A stretch of DNA of 64,000 nt. Source: Stella humosa (GTDB taxonomy: Bacteria; Pseudomonadota; Alphaproteobacteria; ATCC43930; Allostellaceae). Below, piece after piece: positions 5,110-21,811 of the stretch. The stretch lies in the NCBI RefSeq assembly GCF_006738645.1, contig NZ_AP019700.1, positions 4,632,001 through 4,696,000 on the forward strand, given 5' to 3'. Every line of letters begins with the position of its first letter. Within the stretch, counting starts at the first letter, position 1. The notes under the pieces were generated by a model that worked only from the letters and a program-made list of their open reading frames with translations, had not been told where the DNA came from and did no database searches. The position numbers were made by a program, and so were the translations under genes.

Positions 5110-5159
5110 GAAACTGGAGCGGGCGAGGCGATTCGAACGCCCGACCCCAACCTTGGCAA
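5110..5159 (-). repeat. Left attachment repeat (displaced 3' end of tRNA-Gly)
   Basis: These 50 bases are identical to 21762-21811. Positions 5115-5159 match the 3' 45 bases of tRNA-Gly, including CCA, the T arm and the anticodon, then the match stops abruptly. This is the original chromosomal 3' end, cut off from its 5' half when the island inserted and supplied its own copy. Confidence 0.9.
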
Positions 5160-5280
5160 TAATGGGGTCGGGGGCTTTCCCGAATTTTCCCGAGATGGCG
5201 CACCATACCTAATCCGTTGATTTTCCTGCGATCATTCTTTTCTCGTGATGGCGCGAGATTGACAGGATTGGGCTCGGTTT

Positions 5281-5324
5281 GCTTCCATCTGCTTCCGCCC
5301 TGCTTCCGCGGCTCCGGCGGAAGC
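5281..5324. repeat. GCTTCC repeat cluster near left att (candidate integrase arm sites)
   Basis: GCTTCC occurs at 5281, 5291 and 5302 (10-11 bp spacing, one DNA turn) and inverted at 5319-5324. The 20 bases at 5290-5309 recur exactly at 21681-21700 beside the right attachment site. Repeats shared by both att arms at helical spacing are what arm-type integrase binding sites look like; function is inferred. Confidence 0.55.
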
Positions 5325-5338
5325 AATTTGGTAGAGCC

Positions 5339-6589
5339 ATGCCGAAGATCACCAAGCGTATCGTCGACGCCCTGGCCCCGGACCCCGCCGGCCGCGAAGT
5401 GGCGATATGGGACACCGAGCTGAAGGGCTTCGGCGTCCGCATGATGCCGAGCGGTATCGCCTCATTCTTCGTCTACTACCGCACCGCCGAAAACCGGCAG
5501 CGCAAGCTGGTGCTGGGGCGGGTCGGCACCCTCACGCCGGAGGAAGCGCGGCACCAGGCCCGCCTGAAGCTGGCGGAGGCGTCGAAGGGTGCCGACCCCT
5601 CAGCCGAACGGCACAAGGTCCGCCGCTCGATCACCGTCACGGAGCTATGCGACCTCTACCTGGCCGACGCCGCAGCCCGCATCAAGGCGTCGACCCTGGC
5701 GATGGATCGCAGCCGCATTGAACGCCACGTCAAGCCGCTCATCGGGCGACATACCGTCCTGGCGCTGACCTCCGAGGACGTGGCGAAGCTTCAGGCCGAT
5801 GTCATCGCCGGCCGGACGGCAGCAAAGCGCGACGGCCGCGGCGGCGTGACGAGCGGGGGCAAGGGGGTCGCGTCCCGCACCGTCGGCATGCTGGGCACCA
5901 TCCTGGAGTTCGCCAGGAAGCGGAAGATCGTGAAGGAGAACGTCGCCCGCGGGATCGAGCGGCCGGCGGACGGGAAGCAAAAGCGGTTCCTGTCGACGAA
6001 GGAGATGGCCGCGCTGGGCAAGGCCATGGTCGCGGCCGTGGCCGATGGCGAGACCGATACGGGCATCGCGGCCGTCCGCTTCCTCCTCCTCAGCGGCTGC
6101 CGCCGCATGGAAGCATTGGCCCTGCCCATGGAGATCGTCGACCGCCAGGCCGGATGCATTCGCTTCAAGGACACGAAGAGCGGCGCACAGATCCGCCCGA
6201 TCGGCAGCAAGGCATTCGCCGCCCTTGACCTGGTCGGCCACCGCAACGGCTGGGCGTTCCCGGCGGCCCGCGGCAAGGGCCATTTCATCGGCCTGCCGAA
6301 GGTGCTGGATCGCCTATGCAGGCGGGCCAAGCTGTCGGACGTGACGGTTCACGTCCTGCGGCACAGTTTCGCCGCCACGGCTGCCGAGATGGGCTTCTCT
6401 GAGCTGACCATCGCCGGCCTGCTCGGCCACACCGTGTCGGGCGTGACCGCCCGCTATGCCCACGTCCCGGATAGCGCCCTGGTCATCGCTGCAGAACGGG
6501 TGTCAGCCCGCATCGCAACGGCCCTCGATGGTGAGAAGGAAGGGGCGAAGGTGGTGCAGATGCCGCGGCGGGCGCGGGCAAAACCGTAA
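5339..6589 (+). CDS. int: Tyrosine-type site-specific integrase
   Basis: Recombinase that inserts and excises the island at tRNA-Gly. 416 residues from the ATG at 5339 (MPKITKR), where family homology should begin. The N-terminal 90 residues form the DUF4102 arm-binding domain (WDTELKGFGVR, FFVYYR), a core-binding SAM-like domain spans roughly 95-200, and the C-terminal catalytic domain has all residues in place: R255 (SGCRRMEAL), K280, H338 and R341 (HVLRH), H364 (LLGHTVSG) and the nucleophile Y373 (ARYAH). P4/P22-like integrases of this kind commonly target the 3' end of tRNA genes, which is what is seen. It is transcribed inward from the left att site, and lies beside the repeats at 5281-5324 that it probably binds. 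Confidence 0.95.
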   Translation: MPKITKRIVDALAPDPAGREVAIWDTELKGFGVRMMPSGIASFFVYYRTAENRQRKLVLGRVGTLTPEEARHQARLKLAEASKGADPSAERHKVRRSITVTELCDLYLADAAARIKASTLAMDRSRIERHVKPLIGRHTVLALTSEDVAKLQADVIAGRTAAKRDGRGGVTSGGKGVASRTVGMLGTILEFARKRKIVKENVARGIERPADGKQKRFLSTKEMAALGKAMVAAVADGETDTGIAAVRFLLLSGCRRMEALALPMEIVDRQAGCIRFKDTKSGAQIRPIGSKAFAALDLVGHRNGWAFPAARGKGHFIGLPKVLDRLCRRAKLSDVTVHVLRHSFAATAAEMGFSELTIAGLLGHTVSGVTARYAHVPDSALVIAAERVSARIATALDGEKEGAKVVQMPRRARAKP

Positions 6590-6641
6590 CCACATCCGCG
6601 CGGCGGGGTATTGAAGCGGGCTGTGGCGCTAGAGGCGGCTG

Positions 6642-6668
6642 CGCCAATAGTGCCAATAGTGCCGATAG
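6642..6668 (-). repeat. Three-unit array of a 9-bp repeat (CTATTGGCA family)
   Basis: In the 204-bp gap after the integrase, reading the minus strand, three consecutive 9-mers occur: CTATCGGCA, CTATTGGCA, CTATTGGCG. The same unit appears twice more as three-unit arrays inside the gene at 14465-14986. The rest of 6590-6793 contains nothing I recognise. An iteron or regulator-binding role is possible but unproven. Confidence 0.6.
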
Positions 6669-6793
6669 GTCGGCCCGCGTCCGCCATCGCCATATGAGAG
6701 GGAGAGAAGCAGGCTATCCAGCCCTTTAACTGAGACTATCAAGCTTGGCCGTCTAGCAGCGAAATCGTGTAAAATCGGAAGGCCGCAACCCCG

Positions 6794-7684
6794 ATGGACC
6801 CCATGCCGATTCCGCTCTCTGCAACTCCTATCTCCCTGAAACAGTTTCTTGAGTCAGTGCCGCCAGGCGTGGAGCAGCGAATTGCACAGTTGGCGCTTGA
6901 GACTGGGTCAGTACTTTCAGCAAAGAAACAGTACTCCCTCAACATAGAGGATATTTCTCTGCATTGCGACAATGAAGCGTGCGGAGGCTTGCGCAATTTT
7001 CGATATTCTGACTCGACAATCGATGTTCAAGCTCGCTCGCGCCGATACTTATTTTTACGCTTTACATGTGCCAATTGCCAAAAAACCGGTAAATTGTACG
7101 CCTTGTCGATACAAATTAGCGATATTGCCACTGATGGATTTGTCGAGAAGTTGGGGGAACGACCGCAATTTGGCGACCGCCTTCCTTCGCGCTTAATGGA
7201 AATGATTGGTCCTGACAGAGACCTCTTCCTTAAAGGTCGTAGGTGCGAATCCCAAGGTCTAGGTGTCGGTGCTTTTAGCTATTACCGGCGCGTCGTCGAG
7301 GCACAAAAAGATCGAATCCTTGACCGATTAATTTCCGCCTTAGAGCGACTAAATGCAGACGAATCCGCCATTGCCGAAATTCGCGACATCAAACTACAGC
7401 CGCAGTTTTCTCAAGCAATTTCTGAGATAAAGTCCGCCCTTCCTGACCGGCTTCTCATAAACGGACAGAACCCATACTTGGTATTGCATGGAGCCCTTAG
7501 CGCTGGACTGCACAATGAAACCGATGAAAATTGTCTGGAAGTCGCCCAAGCAGTACGAAGAGTGCTCATAGAATTTTCGGAGCGGTTGAGCTTAGCGTTA
7601 AAAGACCAAGCTGAACTAGATAAGTCGGTCGAACTCTTGACGCTGCGCGGAAGACGTCCCGCCCTTTCTAAGAAAGACTCGTAG
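6794..7684 (+). CDS. Unknown zinc-ribbon protein, AT-richer cargo gene of the island
   Basis: A 296-residue protein I do not recognise. Seen: C58/C63 and C92/C95 (CDNEAC and CANC) make a likely zinc ribbon in the first third; the C-terminal 140 residues are helical, with YYRRVVEAQKDRILDRLI and LHGALSAGLHNETDENCLE, loosely recalling the helical DUF4145-type domains seen in some defence and restriction-linked proteins. Base use is visibly AT-richer than its neighbours, a sign of separate acquisition. The ATG at 6794 or 6803 could be the start. It lies between the integrase and the regulator, the position where phage satellites usually carry cargo, so an anti-phage or host-fitness role is a reasonable guess but not shown. 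Confidence 0.7.
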   Translation: MDPMPIPLSATPISLKQFLESVPPGVEQRIAQLALETGSVLSAKKQYSLNIEDISLHCDNEACGGLRNFRYSDSTIDVQARSRRYLFLRFTCANCQKTGKLYALSIQISDIATDGFVEKLGERPQFGDRLPSRLMEMIGPDRDLFLKGRRCESQGLGVGAFSYYRRVVEAQKDRILDRLISALERLNADESAIAEIRDIKLQPQFSQAISEIKSALPDRLLINGQNPYLVLHGALSAGLHNETDENCLEVAQAVRRVLIEFSERLSLALKDQAELDKSVELLTLRGRRPALSKKDS

Positions 7685-7751
7685 ACGGCTGCAATATCGG
7701 ATGGTTGGACGCTTCGATAGAGATCGAACAGGTCGCGTTTAGCGTTGCGCT

Positions 7752-8048: not shown

Positions 8049-8057
8049 CGTCGGAAA

Positions 8058-8267
8058 TCAGACGGAGTGCAGAACCTGGAATAACCCCACCGCGCCGCCA
8101 AGCGTAGCTCCCAGGGCGCGGGCTATATCGGTATTGCTATCATGCCAGCCGAGCAACGCGCCGGCGATCACAGCACCAAGCAGTGCGAACGACGAAACAA
8201 TCCGTGCACGATGCACGAACGACTTCGAGCCGCCCCGCGGCTTCGTCCACATCATATCGGTCCCCAC
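8058..8267 (-). CDS. Small two-helix membrane protein, island cargo
   Basis: About 65-69 residues; starts may be GTG at 8267 or the ATGs at 8255 and 8252. A basic N-terminus (KPRGGSKSFVHRAR) leads into two hydrophobic segments, IVSSFALLGAVIAGALLGW and IARALGATLGGAVGLFQVL. It precedes another small membrane gene by nine bases in a likely two-gene unit, with a 15-bp palindrome about 45 bases upstream. No family recognised. Paired small membrane proteins may act together, for example as a pore or an exclusion system, but there is no direct evidence. Confidence 0.55.
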   Translation of the reverse strand: MGTDMMWTKPRGGSKSFVHRARIVSSFALLGAVIAGALLGWHDSNTDIARALGATLGGAVGLFQVLHSV

Positions 8268-8485: not shown

Positions 8486-8989
8486 TTATCGCCGCTCCGT
8501 CCAGCCTTGCAGCCTGGCCAGTCCAAGCGCGGCCCGCTTTTCTGGCTGCTGCATCGCTTCGACCTCATCGAATTCGACCGGACGCCATGTCGCACCCTTC
8601 GCAGCCTCGGGAAGGGCGCAGCCATCCACGGCATAAAGTTCGCGAGCACCGGCCTTCCGGCCAAACTCAAGTGCCTCCGTGAAATGACGAACCGGCGGCA
8701 ATGTGACGCCTGCATCCGCGGCAAAGTATGGTGCCCTTGGTGCCCGGCCGAACTTCCAGTCCTCGATCATCCGGCGGAGGCCGTCCGCCGACAGGATCTC
8801 GCGATCATCCTGGAAAACACCCCACACATCGTATCCAGGCCGCTGTTGCAGCGCGACAACGTGCGCCAGCGCGTCTGCCCAGGACTCGAAGCTGTCAACC
8901 AGGCGATTGGCCGGCTTCACCTTCTCCCTGCTCCGGGGGTCCCGCGGGGACACAAGCGCACCATCCAGATAGATGACGTCGAACGGCAT
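8486..8989 (-). CDS. Hypothetical island protein
   Basis: 167-residue soluble protein with no recognised family. It begins MPFDVIYLDGALVSP and has an acidic, aromatic-rich middle (WADALAHVVALQQRPGYDVW, then DDREILSADGLRRMIEDWKF). No signal peptide, membrane segment or catalytic motif is evident. The ATG at 8989 has a good GGAGAGG ribosome site five bases upstream, which supports this frame over the longer opposite-strand frame across the same bases. It follows the two-HTH regulator on the same strand after 121 bases, so it is probably part of the transcript made in the integrated state. Confidence 0.65.
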   Translation of the reverse strand: MPFDVIYLDGALVSPRDPRSREKVKPANRLVDSFESWADALAHVVALQQRPGYDVWGVFQDDREILSADGLRRMIEDWKFGRAPRAPYFAADAGVTLPPVRHFTEALEFGRKAGARELYAVDGCALPEAAKGATWRPVEFDEVEAMQQPEKRAALGLARLQGWTERR

Positions 8990-9110: not shown

Positions 9111-9581
9111 TCACCTTGCTATTTCCCGCTTTTGCTTTTCAGCGTCAAGCAAGACTCGCTCAACAGGAGCAAGTATTTTCAAGTCATATTTGCTGCTATT
9201 TGGAGGCGTTGCCTCAAGGGTTTGCAGATCTTTTAAAGAGACGCCAGCCTGAGCCGCCATATCTTTTTCACTGATACCCAAACTCTCTCGCCTATACTTG
9301 AAGGTGGAGGGATGCCCTTCGCTTTCCGTGAATCCAACCTTAACCATTTCAGTTCTTCCTTTCTTGAGCTTAACGCCCGGACCCTCTCCGTTCTCGGCAA
9401 TGAACTCGACGCCAGCGGCCTCTAGGGCGGTGCGGACTGCAGCGAGAGTGGCCGCATTCGCGGGCCTATCCGCCTCGATCCTCGTGACTGTCGCCGGCGA
9501 GACATGGGCCGCTTGCGCAACGTCCCGCACGCCGAGTTTGAGGGCGGCGCGCGCCATCCGAAGTTGTGTCCCCGTTATCAT
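9111..9581 (-). CDS. XRE-type transcriptional regulator with two HTH modules (candidate island repressor)
   Basis: 156 residues. Residues 1-75 are an XRE helix-turn-helix (TQLRMARAALKLGVRDVAQ, VSPATVTRIEAD) ending in the EFIAENGEGPGVKL segment typical of short alphaproteobacterial phage regulators. A second region (residues about 80-156: RRESLGISEKDMAAQAGVS) reads as another HTH-like unit. It is divergent from the replication-packaging operon that begins at 9726, the classical place for a master repressor whose inactivation by a helper-phage protein would induce the island. The ATG at 9581 has AAGG seven bases upstream. Repressor function is inferred from position. Confidence 0.78.
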   Translation of the reverse strand: MITGTQLRMARAALKLGVRDVAQAAHVSPATVTRIEADRPANAATLAAVRTALEAAGVEFIAENGEGPGVKLKKGRTEMVKVGFTESEGHPSTFKYRRESLGISEKDMAAQAGVSLKDLQTLEATPPNSSKYDLKILAPVERVLLDAEKQKREIAR

Positions 9582-10286: not shown

Positions 10287-10475
10287 ATGGCCTCCTACCG
10301 CCGGTGTCTCCTAGAGATAGACGAAATAGCGCGCGAGCACCCGGCACCCCCATTGCGAATATCCCCGGCATTATCCCGCGCATTTTCCCGATATGGGCTT
10401 GCATTCCAGTACCACGCCTTCTATTGGGTAAATCACTGCGAGCATCCCGGCTTTTTCTGCGAGTTGACGACATGA
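10287..10475 (+). CDS. Small hypothetical island protein
   Basis: 62 residues starting MASYRRCLLEIDEIAREH at the ATG at 10287, with an aromatic, cysteine-containing C-terminus (FYWVNHCEHPGFFCELTT). Its stop overlaps the next ATG as ATGA at 10472, the same tight coupling as other genes of this operon, which is the main reason to call it real. No family recognised. Confidence 0.5.
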   Translation: MASYRRCLLEIDEIAREHPAPPLRISPALSRAFSRYGLAFQYHAFYWVNHCEHPGFFCELTT

Positions 10476-11110
10476 AGCTGAACACCTTCTGCGGGCACCT
10501 CGTCGCCGTGCTCGACCTGCCGATGAGCGAGTTCACCGAGCTGCAACGGGCGTTGAAGGAGCAATCCGAGCACTTCAATCCCAAAAGCTCGATCAATCAG
10601 GAAGCCCGCGCCTATGCCGATGAGGTTGGGGTTGGCTTCGAGCGGAACTTGCTGAAGGGTCGCGCCGGCCCGGGCGGGGGCATCGAGGTCGATCCCTTCC
10701 GCGCCGCCTTCTTCATGCTGGCGGTCGCACTCAACGGCCCCCGGAAGGAAAGCGCCTCGTCGACGTGGATGACGTGGCACTTGATCCAGGAAGGGTCTGA
10801 GCTGTCCGGCTGGGGGGAGAACTGGCGGCCGACCTTCAGGCCTTGCCCATTGACCGGGCAGCCGCTCTTTGGCGAGGCGCTCAAGGCGATCGTCTCCGAC
10901 CCGGTGATGGCGAAGCGTGTGCAGGGTATCCGAATCACGTCGGATCGGACGGCAGAGATCCACTTCGACGGCGACAAGGTCTCCAAGTTCAATCGCGGCC
11001 GACCGGACCCCGAGCCCCCGCTGTATCGCGTTGCGGTGGTCCGCGGGCTCGTTTGGCAGATGGTTGCAAACCTGCTGGCGCGGGACGCTTTGGACACGCA
11101 GGCGGAATAG
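10472..11110 (+). CDS. Hypothetical island protein in the early operon
   Basis: 212 residues from the ATG at 10472, which overlaps the previous stop. The chain looks like a folded soluble protein with helical stretches (MSEFTELQRALKEQSEHF; FRAAFFMLAVALNG) and a C-terminal half containing GEALKAIVSDPVMAKRVQGI. No catalytic motif or DNA-binding domain is obvious. Position between the regulator and the AlpA-like gene suggests a role in island replication or control. An in-frame upstream extension to 10304 is rejected because the ATGA overlap marks the likely start. Confidence 0.65.
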   Translation: MKLNTFCGHLVAVLDLPMSEFTELQRALKEQSEHFNPKSSINQEARAYADEVGVGFERNLLKGRAGPGGGIEVDPFRAAFFMLAVALNGPRKESASSTWMTWHLIQEGSELSGWGENWRPTFRPCPLTGQPLFGEALKAIVSDPVMAKRVQGIRITSDRTAEIHFDGDKVSKFNRGRPDPEPPLYRVAVVRGLVWQMVANLLARDALDTQAE

Positions 11111-11565: not shown

Positions 11566-11967
11566 ATGGTCGCGCCAAACCCCCAAAATGTGTCGGAAGA
11601 GGACGCCAAGGCCCGCGCTCGCGCTCTTGGCGACGCCGTAATGCGCGAGCTGGACGCCGATCGCCGATACTTCGAGCGCCGTCCGCACCGATCCTATCGT
11701 CTGCGGCGATCCTTCCCGGCCGAGGGCGAACAGGTCTCGATTCTCATCGGCGGCGAGTGGCCGATGACGGTCGGTGCGCTGTTCACGGCAGTGCGACAGG
11801 TCGCGCCCGGTGTCCGCGCCCGCGCCTTCTTCCTCGCCCCGCGCAGCCTCGAAACCGACGTGTCCGACGCCGAGGCGGCGGAGTACTTCCGCCAGTTCAA
11901 CACAGCGACCGCCCTCGACGATTTCGCCGCGGCGCTCGCCGCCACACGAGCGGAGCGCCGGCTATGA
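11566..11967 (+). CDS. Hypothetical island protein
   Basis: 133 residues of unknown function. The N-terminal 60 residues are charged and arginine-rich (RRYFERRPHRSYRLRRSF); the middle has GEQVSILIGGEWPMTVGALF and the end is a helical, alanine-rich tail. No motif assigned. The stop overlaps the start of the primase-helicase gene as ATGA, so the two are translated together; a role in replication is plausible. Confidence 0.65.
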   Translation: MVAPNPQNVSEEDAKARARALGDAVMRELDADRRYFERRPHRSYRLRRSFPAEGEQVSILIGGEWPMTVGALFTAVRQVAPGVRARAFFLAPRSLETDVSDAEAAEYFRQFNTATALDDFAAALAATRAERRL

Positions 11968-14468
11968 ACGACTTCACCGGGCTCGCCCGCGCGGCCGTCG
12001 CCGTCCCGGCTATCGATCCCGCCGCACTCGATGCCCATATCCGTATGATCCACCAGCTCGCCGCAGCGTCCGGCGTCGATGGTGTGCTTGTCCTGTTCGG
12101 CGTTGGTGAGAACCCGGCGACCGGCCGAAGAGAAGGCCCACGAGTCGCGCATTTCCACATCGGAGACGCCGACGGCATGATCGAGGCCGCGAAGGGCTAC
12201 AGCTGCACACCCCACCTCAATGCCTATGCCCCTTGGGCCATCTTCCGAAAGGGCATGCCGAGCGGCAGCAAGGGCTCGGAACGCGACGTCGTCGCCGTGC
12301 TCGCGCTCGTCGCCGATCAGGACAACGACAAAGGCCAAGGTGGTACGCTGCCGCTCGCCGCGCCCTACATCGTCGAAAGCAGCCCCGGCAATTTCCAGGC
12401 CGTCTATCCGCTGTCGCGCGCGTTGCCGCCGGCCGAGGCGAAGCCCCTCAGCCAGGCGCTGGCGGAATGTGTCGGGTGCGACCACCGCACTAAGGACGTG
12501 GGCGGCGTTTGGCGCATCCCCGGCCTGCTGAACTGGCCCAACGCGACCAAAGTCGGGCGCGGGCGCTCTATCGACCCGCAGTCTGTCACCGTCGCCAGGG
12601 AATGGGGCGGCGAACTGATTGATCCGGGGGCGCTCCCGGTGCTCGCCAGCAGGCCCAAGCGGGAGGACCGCACCCCCAGGCGAGAAGACAACACCCGCCG
12701 CGAACAGGAACAAAGCCCCCACGCCGATAGAGTCGTCGAGGAATTGTTGGCGCGCTGCGGGGCCGGGCTGCGCAAGCTCATCTCCTCCGGCGCCGAACCC
12801 GGCGAGGACCGATCCGCCGTGGCCTTCAGCGTAATTTGCGGCCTGCTCACGCGGGGGTTCGCTCCCCCTGACATCCGGCGACTGATCGAGGCGCATCCGA
12901 GCGGCATTGGCGGTCGATACGCGGCAGGGAAGGATTTGGACGCCGACATCCGGCGCGGACAGGAAAAGACCCAGACGAACGATGCCGCCGAGACGCCAGA
13001 CGCCTGGCACTCGCCGGACCTGTCCCTGCTCGGCACCGGCCGCCGGCTGGCACCCGATTTCCCGCTCGACCTTCTGGGACCGTACTGGGCGCCATGGATC
13101 GAGCGGCGGGCGGGCGGTGCGTCCGCCCCGGTGGACTATGTGGCGACCTCGCTGCTGGCTTGCGTCGGCGCGATGATCGCCAACGTGCGGTGGCCGGTCG
13201 CCGGTGCGAGCTGGAGTGAGCCGCCACTGCTGTGGTGCGGAATCGTCGGGTCACCGTCGTCCAGCAAGTCGCCGGCGATGGATGCGGCCTTCGACCTGGT
13301 GCGTCATGCCGAAGATCGCATGGCCGCTGGCTTCGACCAGGATCAGCGCCAGCACGAGACGACAAAGCAGATCGCCAAGGCCAAGCGCGACGCCTGGGAA
13401 GCTGACATCAAGATCGCCTTGAGGGCGGGGGAAAGGCCGCCGAACATGCCGGAGGACGCCGTTGCGCCCGACGACCCCGTGCGCCCTCGGGTCCGCGTGG
13501 CCGATTTCACGATCGAGAAGTTGGGCGCCCTTACGGCCGCCCTGCCGCGCGGCCTCCTGGTGGTCCGCGACGAGTTGGCGGGATGGCTCGGCGCCTTCGA
13601 CAAGTACGGCGGCGGCGGCTACGACCGCGCCTTCGCGATCGAGATGTATGGTGGCCGGTCCTACATCGTCGACCGAGTGAAGAACCCGGAGCCGCTCCGC
13701 ATCCGCCATCTCAGTGTCGGCGTGCTCGGGGGCGTGCAACCCGACAAGCTGTCGACCATCATCGAGGGGCCGGACGATGGCCTCGCTTCCCGGCTCCTAT
13801 GGGCATGGCCGGACAGCCTGCCCGAGTTCTCGCTGTCTCGCATCGAGGCCGACGACACCGACGCCAGGGCCGCGTTCGCGCGCCTGGCCGACCTCGGCAT
13901 GGGAAGCGACGAGCACGGCAACCCCGAACCCAAGCGCCTCCGCCTGTCGACGGAGGCTGAGAACCTGCTCGAAGACTTCGCTCGGGATATGTCGAAGCGC
14001 GCGCACGAGGCGAGTGGCATGATGTCTGGCGCCCTCGGCAAGGCGCGCGGTCACGCGCTCCGGCTCGCCACCGTCGTCGAACATCTGTGGTGGTGTGGGG
14101 TTCGCGGCGCATCGGAGCCGACCGCAATATCCGCCGAGGCGGTGACAGCCGCCGCCGGCCTGGTCGACGGCTACTTCATCCCCATGGCCGAGCGGGTGTT
14201 CGGCGACGCCTCGATCCCGGTGGCCGAGCGCGCCGCCATGACCCTGATCCGCTTCCTCAAGCGGAACGGGCTGGCCACCTTCAACGCGCGTGACGCTCGG
14301 CGGGAAGTCGGCGGGCCGCTCCGCGATGCGGCCGCGATGGATGCCGCCTGCGATGCCTTGGTCGAGGCCGGGCTTATCAGGGGCCGCTTCAGCCGCGCCG
14401 GCAGCGTTAAGGGCCGGGCGGCGAAAAACTACGACGTGAATCCAGCAATCTTCGTGGCCGGCCGATGA
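11964..14468 (+). CDS. Island replication protein: primase fused to a DUF3987-type helicase/ATPase
   Basis: 834 residues from the ATG at 11964 (overlaps the previous stop). The N-terminal 240 residues look like a RepB-type primase domain, with HFHIGDADG, a VVAVLALVADQDNDK acidic pair and WRIPGLLNWPN. A linker rich in charged residues follows; then the DUF3987 ATPase domain with LLWCGIVGSPSSSKSPAMD (P-loop) and GLLVVRDELAGWLGAF (Walker B and following). The P-loop reads GSPSSSKS, with serine in place of the usual glycine before lysine. A C-terminal winged-helix-like end (LIRFLKRNGLATFNARD) may bind DNA. Primase-helicase fusions drive autonomous replication of phage satellites after induction. 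Assignment of the DUF3987 part is firm; the primase part less so. Confidence 0.82.
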   Translation: MNDFTGLARAAVAVPAIDPAALDAHIRMIHQLAAASGVDGVLVLFGVGENPATGRREGPRVAHFHIGDADGMIEAAKGYSCTPHLNAYAPWAIFRKGMPSGSKGSERDVVAVLALVADQDNDKGQGGTLPLAAPYIVESSPGNFQAVYPLSRALPPAEAKPLSQALAECVGCDHRTKDVGGVWRIPGLLNWPNATKVGRGRSIDPQSVTVAREWGGELIDPGALPVLASRPKREDRTPRREDNTRREQEQSPHADRVVEELLARCGAGLRKLISSGAEPGEDRSAVAFSVICGLLTRGFAPPDIRRLIEAHPSGIGGRYAAGKDLDADIRRGQEKTQTNDAAETPDAWHSPDLSLLGTGRRLAPDFPLDLLGPYWAPWIERRAGGASAPVDYVATSLLACVGAMIANVRWPVAGASWSEPPLLWCGIVGSPSSSKSPAMDAAFDLVRHAEDRMAAGFDQDQRQHETTKQIAKAKRDAWEADIKIALRAGERPPNMPEDAVAPDDPVRPRVRVADFTIEKLGALTAALPRGLLVVRDELAGWLGAFDKYGGGGYDRAFAIEMYGGRSYIVDRVKNPEPLRIRHLSVGVLGGVQPDKLSTIIEGPDDGLASRLLWAWPDSLPEFSLSRIEADDTDARAAFARLADLGMGSDEHGNPEPKRLRLSTEAENLLEDFARDMSKRAHEASGMMSGALGKARGHALRLATVVEHLWWCGVRGASEPTAISAEAVTAAAGLVDGYFIPMAERVFGDASIPVAERAAMTLIRFLKRNGLATFNARDARREVGGPLRDAAAMDAACDALVEAGLIRGRFSRAGSVKGRAAKNYDVNPAIFVAGR

Positions 14469-14986
14469 GCCGATGGCTTGCGCTCGCGCGAAACGGGGCC
14501 GCGCTGGAGCGCCGCGCCCAAGCCGCCAATCGGCCTATTGGCACTATTGGCACTAACGGCACAGTGCCGCCGACGCCCTCACCGGCCCCTGATCCCACAC
14601 CTATTGGCACTAACGGCATTAACGGCACAGCCGTCCCGATCCCTCCCGACCAAGTGCGGGCGCTGTTCGCGCTGACGGCGAGCCGCCTGGCGGAGACCGA
14701 CCGCCAATCGCCAGACACTGCCCACCGCACGGCCCTGGCGGTCGTTCGAGGGCACCTGCTCAATGACGACCGCTTGGCACCGGACCAGCCGGACCCGCAC
14801 CGCTGCCTAGTGTGTGGGCTGCCGGAGATGGCGGGCAATGTCCTACTCTCCGTCCTGGCCGCCCGCGCAGGCGAGCGGCATTGGCTGCACCACGGCGGCG
14901 ACTGCTACGTCACGCACCGGCGGTGGCAGGATGACAAGGTCAATGCCTGCCTGATCGAAGCGGGCCTAACCGATCTGGATATGTAA
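14465..14986 (+). CDS. Hypothetical zinc-binding island protein with GT-rich repeats
   Basis: 173 residues, start overlapping the previous stop as ATGA. Residues 24-60 hold two blocks of three-residue repeats (PIGTIGTNGT and PIGTNGINGT) encoded by a 9-bp DNA repeat also found outside the gene at 6642-6668. The C-terminal half has CLVCGLPE and WLHHGGDCYVTHRR, four candidate zinc ligands in the arrangement of small phage zinc-finger proteins found after DUF3987 helicases. It is the last gene before the AT-rich gap that precedes the head module. Function unknown, likely in replication. Confidence 0.68.
   Translation: MSRWLALARNGAALERRAQAANRPIGTIGTNGTVPPTPSPAPDPTPIGTNGINGTAVPIPPDQVRALFALTASRLAETDRQSPDTAHRTALAVVRGHLLNDDRLAPDQPDPHRCLVCGLPEMAGNVLLSVLAARAGERHWLHHGGDCYVTHRRWQDDKVNACLIEAGLTDLDM
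14535..14627 (+). repeat. Two three-unit arrays of the 9-bp CTATTGGCA repeat
   Basis: Units at 14535-14543, 14544-14552 and 14553-14561 (CTATTGGCA, CTATTGGCA, CTAACGGCA), and again at 14601-14609, 14610-14618 and 14619-14627. They are in frame in the gene that contains them, but the same array lies in non-coding DNA at 6642-6668 in the other orientation, so the DNA itself may be what matters. Confidence 0.65.
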
Positions 14987-15104: not shown

Positions 15105-16331
15105 GTGAAGATGCTCAACCGCCTCCGTCATTTCTTCGCACCTGAGCGCCGATCGACCGGCACGCTGGGCGACCCTTGGACCGCCCTGCTGCTGGGCGGT
15201 GCCGGCCCGACCGCGTCGGGCACCCCCGTCTCGGTCGAAACGGCCATGCGCCACCCGCCCGTCTTCTCCGCGGTGCGCACGATCGCCGAGCCGGTCGGGC
15301 AGTTGCCTCTCCATATCTACGAACGCCAGGCCGGCGGCGGCCGCATCCGCGCATCCGACCATCCCGCGGCGCGACTACTGGCCGAGCCGAACGACTGGAC
15401 GTCGGGCGACAGCTTCCGCGCCGACATGACGGCCAACATGGCCGCGCGGGGCAATGCCTTCGCCTACGTCAATCGCGGCGGCGGGGGCGAGGTGGTCGAG
15501 ATGATCGCGCTTGATCCCGGTACCGTCACGGTCGAGCGGCACGCCACCACCCTGGAACCGGTCTATCGTCTCGGCGGGGCGGAGGTCGACCGGAGCCGCA
15601 TCCTGCACCTGCGCACCTTCAACGTCGGCGGTCAGCTTGGCTTGTCGCCGATCGACCAGTGCCGGGAAGCCATCGGCCTCTCGATGGTGCTGGAATCCTA
15701 CGGCGCTGGCCTGTTCGGTCGCGGCGCCCGGCCGGCGGGAGTGTTGAAGCATCCGAAGGCGCTCACCGAACCCGTCATCACCCGCCTGCGCGCATCGTTC
15801 GAGCAGCTGTATCGGGGCGGCTCGAATGCCGGCCGGGTGGCGGTGCTCGAAGATGGCGTGACGTGGGAGGCGATGCAGCTTTCCTCGGTCGATGCGCAGT
15901 TCCTGGAAATGCGGATTTTCCAGTTGCGAGAGATCGCCCGCGCCTTCCGCATTCCCGCGCCGCTGATGAACGACTTGGAGCGGGTGACGAAGTCGAGCGC
16001 GGAGGAGCTGGGGCAACAGTTCCTCGTCTGGACCCTCGCCCCGTATCTGCGCGCCTGGCAAAACGCCTTGAACCGGGCGCTGTTCACCGCCGCGGAGCGC
16101 GGTCGCTTCTATGTAGAGTTCCTGGTCGACGACCTTACCCGGGCCGACCTGGCAGCCCGGATGGCGGCCTACGCCACGGCGATCGCCCACGGTGTCCTCA
16201 ATCCCGACGAGGTCCGCGAGATGGAGAACCGCCGGCCCTATCAGGGCGGCGAGGTCTTCACGCGCCCGCAGAACGTCGGCCCGGTCGCCAACGGCCAGCA
16301 GCCGCCGGCCAACGTGGGGGCAACGCCTTGA
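15105..16331 (+). CDS. Phage portal protein (HK97 type)
   Basis: Forms the dodecameric ring at the capsid vertex through which DNA enters, and docks terminase and connector. About 408 residues, with HPPVFSAVRTIAEPVGQLPLHIYER, LLAEPNDWTSGDSFRADM, a central GNAFAYVNR and the RIPAPLMNDLERVTKSSAEEL stretch, all typical of HK97-family portals. GTG at 15105 or ATG at 15111 may be the start. Unlike most tailed phages, where the terminase genes come first, here portal opens the operon and the terminase genes close it. Its stop overlaps the protease start. Confidence 0.92.
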   Translation: MKMLNRLRHFFAPERRSTGTLGDPWTALLLGGAGPTASGTPVSVETAMRHPPVFSAVRTIAEPVGQLPLHIYERQAGGGRIRASDHPAARLLAEPNDWTSGDSFRADMTANMAARGNAFAYVNRGGGGEVVEMIALDPGTVTVERHATTLEPVYRLGGAEVDRSRILHLRTFNVGGQLGLSPIDQCREAIGLSMVLESYGAGLFGRGARPAGVLKHPKALTEPVITRLRASFEQLYRGGSNAGRVAVLEDGVTWEAMQLSSVDAQFLEMRIFQLREIARAFRIPAPLMNDLERVTKSSAEELGQQFLVWTLAPYLRAWQNALNRALFTAAERGRFYVEFLVDDLTRADLAARMAAYATAIAHGVLNPDEVREMENRRPYQGGEVFTRPQNVGPVANGQQPPANVGATP

Positions 16332-16867
16332 CCCTCCAGCATCGCGACATCCAGTTCCGCTTCGCTGGCGAGGATAGCGGTTCGATCGAGGGCTATGCGG
16401 CCGTCTGGGGTCGGCCCGATAGCTTCGGCGACGTGCTCCGCCGTGGCGCCTTCGCCGCATCGCTGGCACGCCATCGCGCCGCCGGCACCCGGCCCCTGAT
16501 GCTTTGGTCGCACGACCCGGCCGGGATCGTCGGCACCTGGGACGCGATCGAGGAAGACGACCACGGCCTGAAGGTCCGCGGCCGCCTGGTGCTCGACGCC
16601 ACGGGCGGCCGCGATGCCCATGCCCTGCTGAAGGCGAATGCGCTCGACGGCCTGTCGATCGGCTTCCGCACGGTGAAGGCGCAACGCCTCCCGCAGGGCG
16701 GTCGCCAGGTGCTCGAAGTCGAACTCGTCGAAGTCAGCCTCGTCGGTCGACCGTCGCAGCACGGCGCCCGCCTCCTCACTGTCAAATCCGCGGCCCTGGC
16801 CGCACCCGCAGCGGCCGGGCTTGCCGCGCTGATCCGCGCATCGGCGGCGAAGCTCGAAAGGAAGTGA
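16328..16867 (+). CDS. Prohead (capsid maturation) protease, HK97 family
   Basis: Serine protease that cleaves the capsid protein's N-terminal delta domain during head assembly. 179 residues from the TTG at 16328, which overlaps the portal stop (TTGA). Starts QHRDIQFRFAGED and shows GSIEGYAAVWGRPDSFGDV, the catalytic histidine in MLWSHDP and catalytic serine in LDGLSIGFRTV, followed by LEVELVEVSLVGRP, the full HK97 protease signature. It is two bases from the capsid gene. Confidence 0.92.
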   Translation: MTLQHRDIQFRFAGEDSGSIEGYAAVWGRPDSFGDVLRRGAFAASLARHRAAGTRPLMLWSHDPAGIVGTWDAIEEDDHGLKVRGRLVLDATGGRDAHALLKANALDGLSIGFRTVKAQRLPQGGRQVLEVELVEVSLVGRPSQHGARLLTVKSAALAAPAAAGLAALIRASAAKLERK

Positions 16868-18523: not shown

Positions 18524-19144
18524 ATGCTGACCGTCACCACGGCAGCCGAGGATTACAACCTGCTGACCCCTGCCGAGCTGCGGCAGGCGGTCGGCCTGTC
18601 CGGCGACGACGCCAGCAAGGACGCGACGCTGGCACCGCTGGGGTTGCGGGTCGCAGCGGCCATCGCGCAGGTCTGCTTCGTCGCCCCGGCCGGCGCCAGT
18701 CCGCCTACCCTGCGCATGGAGACAGTGACCGAGACGGTGCCGACCGGAATGCGCGACGGGCTGCTGCTGTCGCGGCGCCCCGTCGTCGCCATCACCAGCG
18801 TCGTCGAGGATGGTGCCGCGCTCGACCCAGGCGACTACGAGGTCGACCCGACGACCGCGATCCTGTCGCGCGTCTACGGCGGTCGCTGCGCCTACTGGTC
18901 GGCCGGCCGCATCGTCGTCGTCTATCAAGCCGGTTGGGCCGCGGTGCCGCACGACGTGAAGCAGGCCGCTGCCATGTGGGTGCAGTGGCTGTACCACCAG
19001 GCCGGCCGCGATCCGATGCTTCGTTCCGAGGAAGTGCCCGACGTCTACAGCGCGAGCTGGGCAACCCCGACCAGCCGGGACGCGCCGATGCCCGCGGGAG
19101 TGCCGGAGTTGCTGGCCGCCTATCGCAACGCTTGGATCGCGTGA
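18524..19144 (+). CDS. Head-tail connector (gp6-like)
   Basis: 206 residues. It begins DYNLLTPAELRQAVGLSGDD, then PVVAITSVVEDGAALDPGDYEVDPTTAILSR and HDVKQAAAMWVQWLYHQAGRD, the layout of gp6-like/YqbG head-tail connector proteins that sit under the portal. In a tail-less satellite this would be the surface that accepts a helper phage's tail, so it should match the helper. Starts two bases after the previous stop and ends overlapping the HNH gene (GTGATG). Confidence 0.8.
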   Translation: MLTVTTAAEDYNLLTPAELRQAVGLSGDDASKDATLAPLGLRVAAAIAQVCFVAPAGASPPTLRMETVTETVPTGMRDGLLLSRRPVVAITSVVEDGAALDPGDYEVDPTTAILSRVYGGRCAYWSAGRIVVVYQAGWAAVPHDVKQAAAMWVQWLYHQAGRDPMLRSEEVPDVYSASWATPTSRDAPMPAGVPELLAAYRNAWIA

Positions 19145-19491
19145 TGCCCCCCGCACCCATGAAGCACTGCCCTGCCGGCCATGCCGCCTACAGCACGCCG
19201 CGCTGTCCTGGCTGCACCAGGGCGCGGCGCCAGGCGCACGATGCCGTCCGGCCGAGTGCAGCCCTGCGCGGATACGATGGCGAGTGGCGCGAGCTGCGCA
19301 AGCGGTTCCTGGCAGCACACCCCCGCTGCTGCATGTGCGGGGCTGCTGCGAATGAAGTCGACCACATCGTCGCCATCGCGGACGGCGGCGCCCGCCTCGC
19401 CTGGGCCAACTTGCGCAGCATGTGCAAACCACACCACTCCCGCCGCACCATCGCCGACCAGCGGGCCAAGCGCGGGGGTCGCGTCGAATGA
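19144..19491 (+). CDS. HNH endonuclease (packaging module)
   Basis: 115-residue nuclease. C-terminal HNH domain with CCMCG, the EVDHIVAIADGG catalytic histidine, WANLRSMCKPHHSRRT (N and final H, plus zinc ligands). An N-terminal CPAGH...CPGC pair may form a second zinc site. In HK97-like phages an HNH protein next to the terminase genes is needed for cos cleavage and packaging; the gene order HNH-TerS-TerL here agrees. Start ATG at 19144 overlaps the connector stop. Confidence 0.9.
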   Translation: MPPAPMKHCPAGHAAYSTPRCPGCTRARRQAHDAVRPSAALRGYDGEWRELRKRFLAAHPRCCMCGAAANEVDHIVAIADGGARLAWANLRSMCKPHHSRRTIADQRAKRGGRVE

Positions 19492-19651
19492 CCGACATCG
19501 CCGCACAGGCGCCGCATCGGGGCCGCATCGAGGCGGCCGGCGGGTCGAAGGGGCGAATGGGGTCGCCGATTGGGGCCGTGGGGCGTGGACCGCGCGGGGG
19601 TCTCGCGCGCGACGTCGGCCCCTCCCGACATTTTTCCTGGCCGGGGCTGAT
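19492..19651. other. 160-bp non-coding gap before terminase small subunit (candidate cos region)
   Basis: No believable gene. It is G/C-rich with alternating CGCGCGGGGGTCTCGCGCGC-type sequence (about 19590-19610) followed by a C/T block and ATTTTTCC. In cos-packaging HK97-like phages the cohesive-end site lies in precisely this HNH-terS gap, so this is the best candidate for the island's packaging start. Not verified. Confidence 0.4.
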
Positions 19652-20044
19652 ATGGCCAAGCCCGCTCGCGACCCCGCCGCCCGCTTGGAGAAGGCACCTG
19701 CTGCCCCTGCGCACCTGTCCGACCGCGCCAAGGTCGAATGGCGGAAGCTGGCGCCCGTGGCGGTCGCCCTTGGCACCCTGACGCTGGCGGACCTGCGGGC
19801 GTTCGAGCTGCTGGCCGAGACGCTGGCGACCGAGCGCGAGGCGCGGGACACCATCACCCGCGAGGGCATGTCGACCCCGACCGGCGACGGCGGACTGAAG
19901 CCGCACCCGGCCGTCCGCATCATGGAAGCCGCCCGCAACCAGGCGTGCAGGTTGCTCGATACCTTCGGCATGACGCCGCGCGGTCGTGGCAATGTCGAGC
20001 GTGCCGCGGCGACCACAGACAATTGGGACGGGCTGCTGTCGTGA
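19652..20044 (+). CDS. terS: Terminase small subunit (P27 family)
   Basis: 130 residues from the ATG at 19652. It has the P27 layout: an APAHLSDRAKVEWRKLAP start, LTLADLRAFELLAETLA, the ITREGM turn and HPAVRIMEAARNQACRLLDTFGMTP. It recognises the packaging site and loads the large subunit. Its stop overlaps the TerL GTG start as GTGA. In satellites with their own TerS, this subunit directs packaging of satellite rather than helper DNA. Confidence 0.9.
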   Translation: MAKPARDPAARLEKAPAAPAHLSDRAKVEWRKLAPVAVALGTLTLADLRAFELLAETLATEREARDTITREGMSTPTGDGGLKPHPAVRIMEAARNQACRLLDTFGMTPRGRGNVERAAATTDNWDGLLS

Positions 20045-21645
20045 CCGTCGCAGGCTGCCTGACCGGCTCGCGCTTCCTGGCCGGCCCGATCGCCGATCCG
20101 ATGGGGAAGGGCGAGCGCGCCGTGCGCTTCGTCGAGAAGCTGCGCCATACCGAAGGGCCGCTCGCCGGTCGCCCGTTCAAGCTGCATGACTGGCAGGCGC
20201 GCATCGTCCGCAAGGTTTTCGGCGACGTCACCGAGGCAGGGCACCGGAAGATCCGCACCGTCTTCCTGCTGCTGCCCCGCGGCTCCGGCAAGACGTCGTT
20301 GACCTCAGCCCTGGCGCTGTTGTGCCTTCTCGGTCCCGAGCGCGATGCCGCCGGCCAGGTGATCGCTGCCGCGGCCGACCGGGAACAGGCGTCGATCGCG
20401 TACAACGCCTCCGCCCGCGCCATCCGTGCCGATGCCGACCTGTCCAAGGCAACCCGGATCGTCGACAGCCGGCGCATGATCGTTCACCCGCGGTCGGAGT
20501 CGACCTATCGGGCCATCAGCCATGAGGCGTACTCGAAGCACGGGTTGGCCGTCTCGACGCTGCTCGCCGACGAGATCCACGCTTGGCCGACGCGCGACCT
20601 TTGGGACGTGCTGGTGTCATCCATGGGTAAGCGGCTGTGCCCGCTGACCATCGTCACCACGACCGCCGGCGCCGGCCGCGGCACGCTTGCATGGGATCTC
20701 TACGACTACGCCTTGAAGGTCGAGCGCGGCCAGGTCGAGGACGAGACGTTCCTGCCGGTGCTTTACCAGGCGCCGCACGACGCCGATTGGCGCGATGAAG
20801 CCATCTGGCAGGCCGTCAACCCCGCCCTCGCCGCGGGCTTCCGGTCCCTCGACGAGATGCGGGTAATGGCGCGCCAGGCGGCCGAGATCCCTTCTGTCCG
20901 CGAGATGTTCCGCCGGCTCTACCTCAACATCTGGGGCGATGCCGCGACCGTGTCGTGGGTGGACATGGCGATCTATGACGAGAGCGCCAAGGCTCCGGTC
21001 GAGCGGGCGGATCTGGCCGGCCGATCGGTCTATGTCGGGGTCGACCTTGCGAGCGTGTCCGACCTCGCGGCCGTCTATGCCGTGGCGCAGGACGATGATG
21101 ATGGGTGGCTGGTGTGGGGTCGGCAGTACGTCCCGGCCGACACCTACCGCAAGCGGATCGCGGAGAATGCGCCCTATGCGGCCTTCAAAGAGTCCGGCCG
21201 GCTGGTGGTGACCGATGGTGCCGTGATCGACCAGGAGCGCATCATTGCCGACCTGGTCGAGCTATGCAGCGACCTGGACGTGCGCGAGATCGCGGTCGAC
21301 CGCTGGGGCGCCACGGGCTTCCTGACCAGACTGCAAGAGCGTGGCTTGCCCGTCGTGCAGTTCGGCCAGGGCTTCGCGTCCATGTCGGCGCCCTGCAAAG
21401 AGATCGAGCGGGCGGTGATCGGTCGGAAGCTGAAGGCCGGCGGCGACCCGGTGCTGCGCTGGAACATCGCCAACATCAGGGTCGAGCCGGATGCCGCGGG
21501 CAACATCAAGTTCGCAAAGCACAAGGCGCTGGGGAAGATCGACGGGGCGGTCGCGGTCGCTATGGGAATCGGGCGGGCGCTGGCCAATGAGGCGGGGCCT
21601 TCGGTCTACGAAACGGGGCGGCCGGAGGGCGTGCTGTTCGTGTAG
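20041..21645 (+). CDS. terL: Terminase large subunit (ATPase-nuclease)
   Basis: 534 residues from the GTG at 20041. Motor ATPase domain first: HDWQARIVRKVFG, Walker A at residues 79-86 (PRGSGKTS), Walker B with D177-E178 (LLADEIHAW), and coupling motif TIVTTTAG. The RNase H-like nuclease follows, beginning YVGVDLASVSD with D335. All motifs look intact, so the protein should be active. It is the last gene of the island, only about 115 bases from the right att repeat, with no tail genes behind it. Confidence 0.94.
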   Translation: MTVAGCLTGSRFLAGPIADPMGKGERAVRFVEKLRHTEGPLAGRPFKLHDWQARIVRKVFGDVTEAGHRKIRTVFLLLPRGSGKTSLTSALALLCLLGPERDAAGQVIAAAADREQASIAYNASARAIRADADLSKATRIVDSRRMIVHPRSESTYRAISHEAYSKHGLAVSTLLADEIHAWPTRDLWDVLVSSMGKRLCPLTIVTTTAGAGRGTLAWDLYDYALKVERGQVEDETFLPVLYQAPHDADWRDEAIWQAVNPALAAGFRSLDEMRVMARQAAEIPSVREMFRRLYLNIWGDAATVSWVDMAIYDESAKAPVERADLAGRSVYVGVDLASVSDLAAVYAVAQDDDDGWLVWGRQYVPADTYRKRIAENAPYAAFKESGRLVVTDGAVIDQERIIADLVELCSDLDVREIAVDRWGATGFLTRLQERGLPVVQFGQGFASMSAPCKEIERAVIGRKLKAGGDPVLRWNIANIRVEPDAAGNIKFAKHKALGKIDGAVAVAMGIGRALANEAGPSVYETGRPEGVLFV

Positions 21646-21680
21646 GGGGCCGCCGACGCCGGGAACCATCTTGCGCCGAT

Positions 21681-21700
21681 TGCTTCCGCCCTGCTTCCGC
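21681..21700. repeat. Right copy of the 20-bp repeat near att (candidate arm site)
   Basis: Exact copy of 5290-5309 in the same orientation, with GCTTCC at 21682 and 21693. It is about 60 bases inside the right attachment repeat. The pairing with the left copy suggests integrase or excision-factor binding. Confidence 0.55.
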
Positions 21701-21761
21701 CGCCCGGGCAAGGAAAAGGCCCGCCGAGGCGAGCCATCTTCAAGTCCTTGATTTTCCTGAG

Positions 21762-21811
21762 GAAACTGGAGCGGGCGAGGCGATTCGAACGCCCGACCCC
21801 AACCTTGGCAA
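21762..21811 (-). repeat. Right attachment repeat (island-supplied 3' part of tRNA-Gly)
   Basis: 50 bases identical to 5110-5159. They rebuild the 3' 45 bases of tRNA-Gly next to the native 5' half, so the gene stays functional after insertion. Crossover lies somewhere inside these 50 bases. Confidence 0.9.

What the first reader, a model, noticed from the sequence alone, without database searches (positions are those of the whole stretch)
5110..21811. Self-packaging, tail-less phage satellite (cf-PICI-like) in an alphaproteobacterium
Seen: integrase, regulator, AlpA-like HTH, primase-helicase, then a full head and packaging set (portal, protease, capsid, connector, HNH, TerS, TerL) inside a precise 50-bp tRNA-Gly repeat. 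There is no tail, tape-measure, baseplate or lysis gene anywhere in the 16.7 kb. TerS-TerL close the element instead of opening the structural module, as they do in ordinary HK97-like phages. Known: capsid-forming phage-inducible chromosomal islands carry this set, are about this size, and use helper tails. Inferred: this island forms its own small capsid and spreads with a helper siphophage. I know of no well-studied example in this part of the Alphaproteobacteria.
Basis: partly seen in the sequence, partly recalled or inferred. Interest (0 to 1): 0.93.

Follow-up and report, generated by a model that had tools for sequence, protein, structure and literature searches.

The report
Capsid-making, tail-less phage satellite
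A 16.7-kb island in an alphaproteobacterial chromosome carries the genes to build and fill its own virus head but no recognisable genes for a tail, and it belongs to a widespread family of such islands that probably borrow tails from other phages to spread.

Summary
Between exact 50-bp repeats in tRNA-Gly lies a 16.65-kb element: integrase, XRE regulator, excisionase-type marker, primase-helicase, portal, protease, capsid, decoration protein, adaptor, HNH, TerS, TerL; no tail or lysis gene is recognised.
The satellite reading is well supported, with corrections. "TerL last" is not diagnostic: in 68 of 70 related loci TerL is downstream of the portal, and 60 of the 70 show tail genes. One locus of the window's portal clade, L030, has a tape-measure-like gene. 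For the satellite: the window's TerL lies in supported sets of 7 and 19, all without tail-profile hits; a 96-aa RdfS/AlpA-like marker finds 28 loci, 26 with the head module and none with a tail-profile hit; seven elements have precise att repeats in tRNA-Gly, Thr, Val or Arg, spanning 14.4-18.0 kb; head genes of relatives are under purifying selection.
So it is most likely a maintained capsid-forming satellite, not a random remnant. Helper, particles and transfer are inferred; four searches found no resident helper. New variant of a known kind (cf-PICI-like).

The parts
5110..5159 (.). att repeat, left (int-proximal)
   Evidence: exact 50-nt repeat
5290..5325 (.). putative integrase arm sites, left (TGCTTCCG x3, one inverted)
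5339..6589 (+). tyrosine integrase, 416 aa
   Evidence: PF00589, PF13356, PF14659; phrog_1
6794..7684 (+). unknown protein (phrog_25239), cargo zone
8486..8989 (-). unknown cargo gene; 80% identical homologue next to the same tRNA-Gly in congener G003
   Evidence: no family hit
9111..9581 (-). XRE/HTH repressor-like regulator, divergent
   Evidence: PF13560, PF01381
9824..10279 (+). hypothetical ORF, no hit; start uncertain
10472..11110 (+). unknown protein; homologue in marker element L006
11263..11553 (+). RdfS/AlpA-like excisionase-regulator, 96 aa; family marker (CLPPxLRKPRLRR)
   Evidence: profile hit 8dgl E=3.9e-6; fold match 8dgl; alignment
11566..11967 (+). unknown, upstream of primase
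   Evidence: no hit
11964..14468 (+). primase-helicase (borderline RepB_primase, DUF3987), 834 aa
   Evidence: phrog_2373 helicase
14465..14986 (+). unknown
   Evidence: no hit
15111..16331 (+). portal protein
   Evidence: PF04860, phrog_12
16328..16867 (+). S78 prohead protease (TTG start)
   Evidence: PF04586
16870..18036 (+). HK97-fold major capsid protein; nearest solved: RcGTA capsid Rcc01687
   Evidence: PF05065
18093..18521 (+). probable capsid decoration protein (phrog_5707); 70% identical to that of a phage in congener G001
18524..19144 (+). head-tail adaptor
   Evidence: phrog_442
19144..19491 (+). HNH endonuclease (start 19144 or 19159)
   Evidence: PF01844; phrog_589
19652..20044 (+). 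terminase small subunit
   Evidence: PF05119
20041..21645 (+). terminase large subunit (start near 20038-20041)
   Evidence: PF03354, PF20441; 80% identical to L002
21681..21699 (+). putative integrase arm sites, right (TGCTTCCG x2)
21762..21811 (.). att repeat, right (in tRNA)
21767..21841 (-). tRNA-Gly(gcc), integration target

Best explanation
It is a capsid-forming phage satellite. Shown in sequence: it is integrated site-specifically in tRNA-Gly and encodes its own integrase, an excisionase-type protein, a divergent XRE regulator, a primase-helicase, an HK97-type head (portal, protease, capsid, decoration, adaptor) and packaging enzymes (HNH, TerS, TerL), and no recognised tail or lysis gene. 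Inferred: a phage infection or induction relieves the XRE repressor; the RdfS-like protein turns the integrase to excision; the circle replicates with its primase-helicase; its own capsids are filled by its own terminase, probably at a cos site with HNH help; the adaptor then docks tails made by a helper phage, which also lyses the cell; the chimeric particle injects the satellite, which re-integrates into tRNA-Gly.
For: Anatomy. Seven att-bounded elements of this plan, the window included, 14.4-18.0 kb, in tRNA-Gly, Thr, Val and Arg. Marker scan: 28 loci, 24 with all six head/packaging genes and 2 more cut by contig ends; 0 of 28 hit the tape-measure, neck, terminator or major-tail profiles, none hits the tape-measure-like gene of L030, and portal and TerL are only about 4-6 kb apart in those with both. 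TerL sets of 7 (100) and 19 (97) hold tail-less rows alone. dN/dS of portal, protease, capsid and TerL 0.03-0.11 in five close pairs of relatives. Replication module varies (DUF3987, DUF927, Toprim-DUF3631, PolA, DnaB) while head and marker persist, as expected of a selected plan rather than decay.
Against: No particle, induction or transfer data. No helper prophage found in the strain by four searches. L030, one of the eight rows of the window's portal clade, carries a tape-measure-like gene. Seven ORFs besides the marker have no Pfam or PHROG hit and could hide a short tail. The window has one connector; several relatives have an added head-closure protein. Two att-bounded relatives carry a protein with a tail-labelled hit: L190 a tail-fibre J/Lambda_tail_I domain gene after TerL, L066 an 85-aa protein labelled tail fibre inside the head module. 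TerL trees put tail-less rows in at least two places among tailed phages. The dN/dS test used relatives, not the window's own copy, and five wider pairs give higher values.
Confidence: 0.82

Rival explanations
1. Remnant of an alphaproteobacterial siphophage of the portal-first, TerL-downstream type that lost its tail genes by deletion up to attR.
For: Most related loci are such phages, with neck and tail genes between HNH and TerS and the tape measure right after TerL. One locus of the window's own portal clade, L030, has a tape-measure-like gene. A second set of ten tail-less TerL rows is nested among tailed phages.
Against: From such a phage it would need two deletions (HNH-TerS interval and beyond TerL) while keeping exact att repeats. 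The reduced plan recurs in seven att-bounded elements in four tRNA types and in 26 of 28 marker loci, with purifying selection and a shared marker protein.
Confidence: 0.1
2. Autonomous small virus: one of the unknown ORFs makes a short tail or entry device, so no helper is needed.
For: Seven ORFs besides the marker have no family hit; one relative, L190, carries a tail-fibre-domain gene; no helper prophage found.
Against: All but one of the unknown ORFs lie between integrase and primase, away from the head genes; no lysis gene is recognised; the head module has an adaptor as in tailed systems.
Confidence: 0.05
3. A domesticated capsid island or GTA-like element that packages host DNA or serves the host.
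For: Capsid is closest among solved structures to the RcGTA capsid.
Against: Own integrase, att sites, primase and HNH, and mobility across tRNA sites; no tail, which GTAs have (recalled).
Confidence: 0.03

Closest known systems
[quoted passage not shown]
   Same: Encodes MCP, protease, portal, connector, TerS, TerL and HNH, and lacks tails: the definition given in PMC10690885 (passages read). Integrase and primase; 16.7 kb against a 14-kb average (PMC10803314, passages read).
   Different: Alphaproteobacterial; [quoted passage not shown] RdfS-like marker in place of an AlpA-Pfam protein; replication module varies; capsid relationship to published cf-PICI clades not tested.
cf-PISP satellite plasmids of Vibrio (PMC13230959, passages read)
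   Same: Tail-less capsid-forming plan; a 16.9-kb Roseomonas mucosa plasmid (pTT14-8) carries portal, protease, capsid and TerL 55-72% identical to the window's.
   Different: The window's element is integrated and shows no plasmid replication gene; [quoted passage not shown]
HE-PICI (helper-embedded PICIs, PMC10111431, passages read)
   Same: One subgroup of marker relatives (L132, L134, L140, L189/L135) sits inside a phage structural gene, co-oriented.
   Different: The window's element is in tRNA-Gly; in the subgroup the interrupted gene is a podoviral adaptor and the satellites carry whole capsid modules.
Alphaproteobacterial portal-first siphophages (for example loci L031 Bauldia, L073 Roseovarius)
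   Same: Homologous portal (47% and 39% identity), protease, capsid, HNH, TerS and TerL in the same order.
   Different: They add adaptor, neck, tail terminator, head closure and tape measure, L073 also a major tail protein.

Membership tests
cf-PICI | Own capsid set: MCP, maturation protease, portal | tested here: met
cf-PICI | Head-tail connectors | tested here: met
   one adaptor, phrog_442; no separate head-closure protein seen in the window, so met for one connector only
cf-PICI | TerS, TerL and HNH | tested here: met
cf-PICI | No tail or lysis genes | tested here: met
   no hit among 20 ORFs; eight ORFs have no hit in either library
cf-PICI | Integrase and specific att site | tested here: met
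cf-PICI | AlpA regulator (PF05930/PF12728, as used in PMC10803314 to find satellites) | tested here: inconclusive
   no Pfam hit at 0.01; profile and fold match RdfS excisionase; that AlpA relatives include excisionases is stated in PMC10111431
cf-PICI | Primase/replication gene | tested here: met
   DUF3987 plus borderline RepB_primase
cf-PICI | Capsid inside one of the published cf-PICI capsid clades | not tested
   no published cf-PICI sequence was in hand
cf-PICI | Induction by, and tails from, a helper phage | not testable with these tools
   no particles or transfer data
Tailed prophage (siphophage) | Tail module (terminator, tube, tape measure) | tested here: not met
   tail profiles give no hit in the window
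Gene transfer agent (RcGTA-like) | Tail genes present and no own integrase/att (recalled) | tested here: not met
   integrase and att present, no tail recognised
cf-PISP satellite plasmid | Plasmid replication/partition genes, not integrated | tested here: not met
   integrated between att repeats; no plasmid-partition hit; the RepB_primase match is a domain of the primase-helicase

The most novel reading that the evidence does not exclude
The window belongs to an alphaproteobacteria-wide satellite chassis, defined by an Arm-DNA-bind_3 integrase and an RdfS-like excisionase (CLPPxLRKPRLRR), that arose apart from the known cf-PICIs and swaps whole modules: at least five replication types and two unrelated capsid cassettes. 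HK97-type with TerL last and lambda-type with TerL first occur with integrases 83-88% identical in the same podophage gene (L134/L140 against L132/L189). A related head module also lives on a plasmid. Capsid cassettes would then be exchangeable cargo of satellites, traded with tailed phages as well.
Probability: 0.45. Interest if true: 0.82.

Novelty: new variant of a known kind. Interest (0 to 1): 0.72.

Why it matters
Capsid-forming satellites are described in the papers I saw mainly from Gammaproteobacteria and Firmicutes. This family would extend them through Alphaproteobacteria (named relatives: Methylosinus, Methylocystaceae, Rhodoblastus, Pseudoroseomonas), give a one-protein marker to find them, and show that one integrase/excisionase chassis can carry different capsid types. 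It also means that some 14-17-kb 'incomplete prophages' in these bacteria may be working satellites. The 15-kb length peak reported for prophages of animal-associated Hyphomicrobiales (PMC11080155, passages read) is worth re-reading in that light; I did not test it.

Tried and rejected
TerL-last as a satellite signature: rejected as a diagnostic, since 68 of 70 related loci have it and 60 of 70 have tail signals.

L030: I first counted it as tail-less in the portal tree. On checking, its 9.3-kb contig has, after the decoration gene, a 463-aa ORF that matches 349 phage records at E up to 0.01, some annotated tape measure, and part of tailed locus L091; a second ORF near the contig end looks like a tail-fibre start by eye, with one weak phage hit.

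Primase as a probe: 3 of 61 genomes matched, the window's own included, the others at 39% identity or less, and 6 phage records at under 32% identity; replication modules are swapped, so it is a poor family marker.

Empty site in congeners: the right flank aligns at 87-90% in three congeners, each with one att copy of 48-49 of 50 matches. In G001 and G003 some sequence just inside the element's right end is conserved too. The left flank does not lie beside the tRNA; in G003 part of it lies about 11 kb away, inverted. So no clean empty site was found. G003 has an integrase C-terminal relic and a homologue of gene 8486 there.

Resident helper: one TerL hit, one portal (both the element's own), no PhageMin_Tail and no sheath in the own genome. 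Lambda-type and podoviral prophages were not searched there. PhageMin_Tail is a weak test: it also missed the congener G001, which has a 2325-aa tape-measure-like ORF. Co-resident PhageMin_Tail in genomes of relatives: 2 of 4 (one of the two under the cut-off), 1 of 3; 0 of 6 virus records.

Salmonella phage As1, a 16.5-kb record, as a comparator: it is a partial genome with tail genes. Plasmids of Methylorubrum (two) and Paracoccus with related TerL carry tail profiles or an annotated tape measure, so they are phage-plasmids, not tail-less. PADLOC found no defence family in 7 ORFs.

Trees: joint monophyly of the two tail-less portal clades is weak (50/95). For one search I took 50 of the 87 rows and left out the long branch L041 (49 rows in the tree); L091 and L083 were not taken; besides L030, I labelled L034, L044 and L092 as tailed although their state is unresolved. 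In one search (all 87 rows) the tail-less label needs 4 changes. The TerL tree used 31 tail-less rows, two of them identical to others, and 35 chosen tailed ones; L157, L003 and L006 had too little TerL and L030 none.

Unresolved: L036, L044, L076, L092, L095 and L103, portal relatives without tail profile or marker; L036 has a weak head-closure hit after TerL. Of the weaker class-scan marker hits that I read, L191 (E=1.3e-25) is a tailed phage, L193 has the head set and no tail profile but its contig soon ends, and L192, L194 and L195 show only integrase and marker.

Decoration protein: modest model (pLDDT 75); PDB fold hits are unspecific and viral fold hits mostly unnamed, so the assignment rests on the profile hit to 8cjz (E=3e-4) and gene position.
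Full report
What is there. An exact 50-nt repeat at 5110-5159 and 21762-21811 bounds a 16,652-bp unit; the right copy lies in tRNA-Gly(gcc) 21767-21841, minus strand. Both ends carry TGCTTCCG octamers with the same 11-bp spacing: five of the six in 64 kb are at the element ends (six in all is not unusual, 11 of 100 shuffles reach it, but the placing is), as expected of integrase arm sites. Pfam and PHROGs identify integrase, XRE regulator, DUF3987 helicase with a borderline RepB_primase domain, portal, S78 protease, HK97 capsid, adaptor, HNH, TerS and TerL; nothing tail- or lysis-like was recognised in 20 ORFs, of which eight have no hit in either library.

Two genes were refined. The 96-aa 'AlpA-like' protein has no Pfam or PHROG hit, but a profile of nine homologues hits the RdfS excisionase 8dgl at E=3.9e-6, and the predicted fold (pLDDT 76) matches 8dgl best, at E=1.1e-3. 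The protein after the capsid is predicted as mostly beta strands, and its profile hits a capsid decoration protein, 8cjz, at E=3e-4. The capsid's nearest solved relative is the RcGTA capsid Rcc01687.

Relatives by portal. A scan of IMG/VR gave 23 loci and a scan of genome contigs kept 80 of 125 confirmed. Of the 80, 70 show both portal and TerL; TerL is downstream of the portal in 68, and 60 of the 70 show a tail signal: 58 by profiles built from these same loci and two more, L032 and L105, by PHROGs tape-measure hits. In 51 a tape measure follows TerL closely (families named). Ten of the 70 lack a tail signal: four (L029, L066, L069, L071) carry the RdfS-like marker; six do not and are unresolved.

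Where the window falls. In a 49-row portal tree the window sits in a clade of eight (100/98) with L002, L003, L004, L005, L006, L029 and L030; L066, L069 and L071 form a second clade (100/100); joining the two is weak (50/95). In seven of the eight no tail gene was seen, though L003, L005 and L006 are cut before or within TerL. The eighth, L030, is different: a 9.3-kb contig whose portal, protease, capsid and decoration genes are 50-63% identical to the window's, followed by a tape-measure-like gene and no TerL. An 87-row tree gives a similar picture with less resolution. In a 66-row TerL tree the window is in a starred set of seven (100) and of nineteen (97), all tail-less rows; another ten tail-less rows form a clade (100) nested among tailed phages, and L190 and L156 stand apart. 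Tail-lessness, or the head and terminase genes, therefore arose or moved more than once.

The marker. Aligning nine homologues (A2) and scanning IMG/VR gave 28 loci. Four are contigs already held (L006 itself; L141=L003, L147=L002, L152=L004), and L148 and L150 have TerL identical to L066 and L071, so they are not independent. Of the 28, 24 hold all six of portal, protease, capsid, HNH, TerS and TerL, one holds five and one four at contig ends, and two (L132, L135) lack this head type; none of the 28 hits the tape-measure, neck, terminator or major-tail profiles, and none hits the tape-measure-like gene of L030. The profiles come from the tailed relatives, so other tail types could be missed, but portal and TerL starts lie only about 4-6 kb apart in the loci that have both. 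For L134 and L151 I read the sequence beyond TerL and found no profile hit to a tail gene. In a class-wide draw of 385 genomes, 64 match at E<=0.001, but only four below 1e-30 (window, G310, G097, G326); the next best (G323) is a tailed phage.

Bounded elements. Seven have precise repeats: window tRNA-Gly 16,652; L066 Methylosinus tRNA-Thr 15,560; L069 Methylocystaceae tRNA-Val 14,415; L071 Rhodoblastus tRNA-Arg 16,035; L188 tRNA-Arg 14,802; L190 tRNA-Arg 17,973; L151 tRNA-Arg 16,404 (start-to-start). Of the 92 ORFs called in five of them (L066, L069, L071, L188, L190) I scanned 64, leaving out most core genes; PHROGs tallies list packaging, HNH, primase, helicase, adaptor and toxin-antitoxin families; 65 families matched and only the first 25 are shown. 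Two tail-labelled hits appear: L066 has an 85-aa protein (phrog_12296) inside the head module, and L190 a 159-aa protein with tail-fibre J/Lambda_tail_I similarity after TerL. These count against a strict 'no tail gene' rule for those two relatives.

Function is maintained. In five closely related pairs of marker elements, dN/dS is 0.05-0.08 for portal, 0.04-0.10 for protease, 0.05-0.11 for capsid and 0.03-0.06 for TerL (four pairs for TerL); HNH, marker and the decoration protein are higher in several pairs; five wider pairs give higher values overall, up to 0.8 for one short integrase piece. Replication genes differ between elements: DUF3987 (window, L066, L071), DUF927 (L002, L003, L029), Toprim-DUF3631 (L069), PolA (L006), DnaB (L190).

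Helper. In the own genome there is one TerL of this kind and one Phage_portal (both the element's), no PhageMin_Tail and no tail sheath; other phage types were not sought. A congener, G001, carries what reads as a siphophage (TerL-first head module and a 2325-aa tape-measure-like ORF; tail genes judged by eye): its decoration protein is 70%, capsid 47%, adaptor 41%, portal 32% and TerL 25% identical to the window's. It is a candidate kind of helper or gene source, nothing more.

Other life forms. Roseomonas mucosa plasmid pTT14-8 (16,883 bp, circular) carries portal 55%, protease 63-64%, capsid 64% and TerL 72% identical to the window, with an IS21 between two pieces of the adaptor and no integrase or marker found. 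This resembles the capsid-forming satellite plasmids reported from Vibrio (PMC13230959, passages read). In L132, L134, L140 and L189/L135, integrases 83-88% identical to each other stand after the N-terminal part of a podoviral head-tail adaptor gene (phrog_332); its C-terminal part was found beyond the element for L189, L134 and L140. L134 and L140 carry the HK97-type head, while L189/L135, and L132 by gene layout, carry a lambda-type terminase, portal and capsid. L137, with an integrase 96% identical to that of L189, has the HK97 type. Capsid cassettes thus appear to be exchanged on one chassis.

Comparison with what is known. The gene set matches the published definition of cf-PICIs (PMC10690885, passages read), which are reported primarily from groups that do not include Alphaproteobacteria (PMC10803314, passages read) and whose capsids form three radiations (PMC11389934, passages read). 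I could not place this capsid among those clades, and the AlpA feature is met only in the wider excisionase sense; so I say it works like a cf-PICI and do not formally file it as one. The listings of my searches of the open library showed no paper describing capsid-forming satellites in Alphaproteobacteria; most subscription papers are not held, and the original cf-PICI paper appeared only as a citation.

Verdict. Observation confirmed; satellite reading supported at about 0.82; helper dependence, particle formation and transfer are inferred. New variant of a known kind.

Noticed in passing
L189:2860-19719 with L196; L132; L134+L204; L140: Marker satellites with integrases 83-88% identical, inserted in a podoviral head-tail adaptor gene (phrog_332), some with an HK97-type head, others with a lambda-type head: apparent capsid-cassette swapping and a helper-embedded arrangement.
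   Followed up: partly
L030:2161-9299: MAG contig with the window's head genes at 50-63% identity followed by a tape-measure-like gene: the same head type apparently in a tail-bearing element.
   Followed up: partly
L199 (CP099479.1, Roseomonas mucosa pTT14-8): 16.9-kb circular plasmid with a head module close to the window's (TerL 72%), no integrase found, IS21 in the adaptor: a possible alphaproteobacterial satellite plasmid.
   Followed up: partly
L111+L112 (congener G001): TerL-first phage region with a 2325-aa tape-measure-like ORF; its decoration protein is 70% identical to the window's although TerL is only 25%.
   Followed up: partly
L121:5916-8529 (congener G003): At the same tRNA-Gly: relic of the integrase C-terminus and a homologue (80% over all 167 aa) of cargo gene 8486-8989, suggesting a past relative of the element at this site.
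   Followed up: partly
L190:1257-1736: Tail-less element carrying a gene with tail-fibre J N-terminal/Lambda_tail_I similarity after TerL; could it modify the borrowed tail?
   Followed up: no
L066, L069, L071, L188: Prohead protease and capsid appear fused in one 530-561-aa ORF in these elements, separate in the window.
   Followed up: no
L036, L044, L076, L092, L095, L103: Portal relatives without tail profiles and without the marker; possibly other tail-less lineages.
   Followed up: partly
L200-L202 (Methylorubrum and Paracoccus plasmids): Phage-plasmids of 16-23 kb with head plus neck/tail profiles or annotated tail genes of the same portal-first family.
   Followed up: partly
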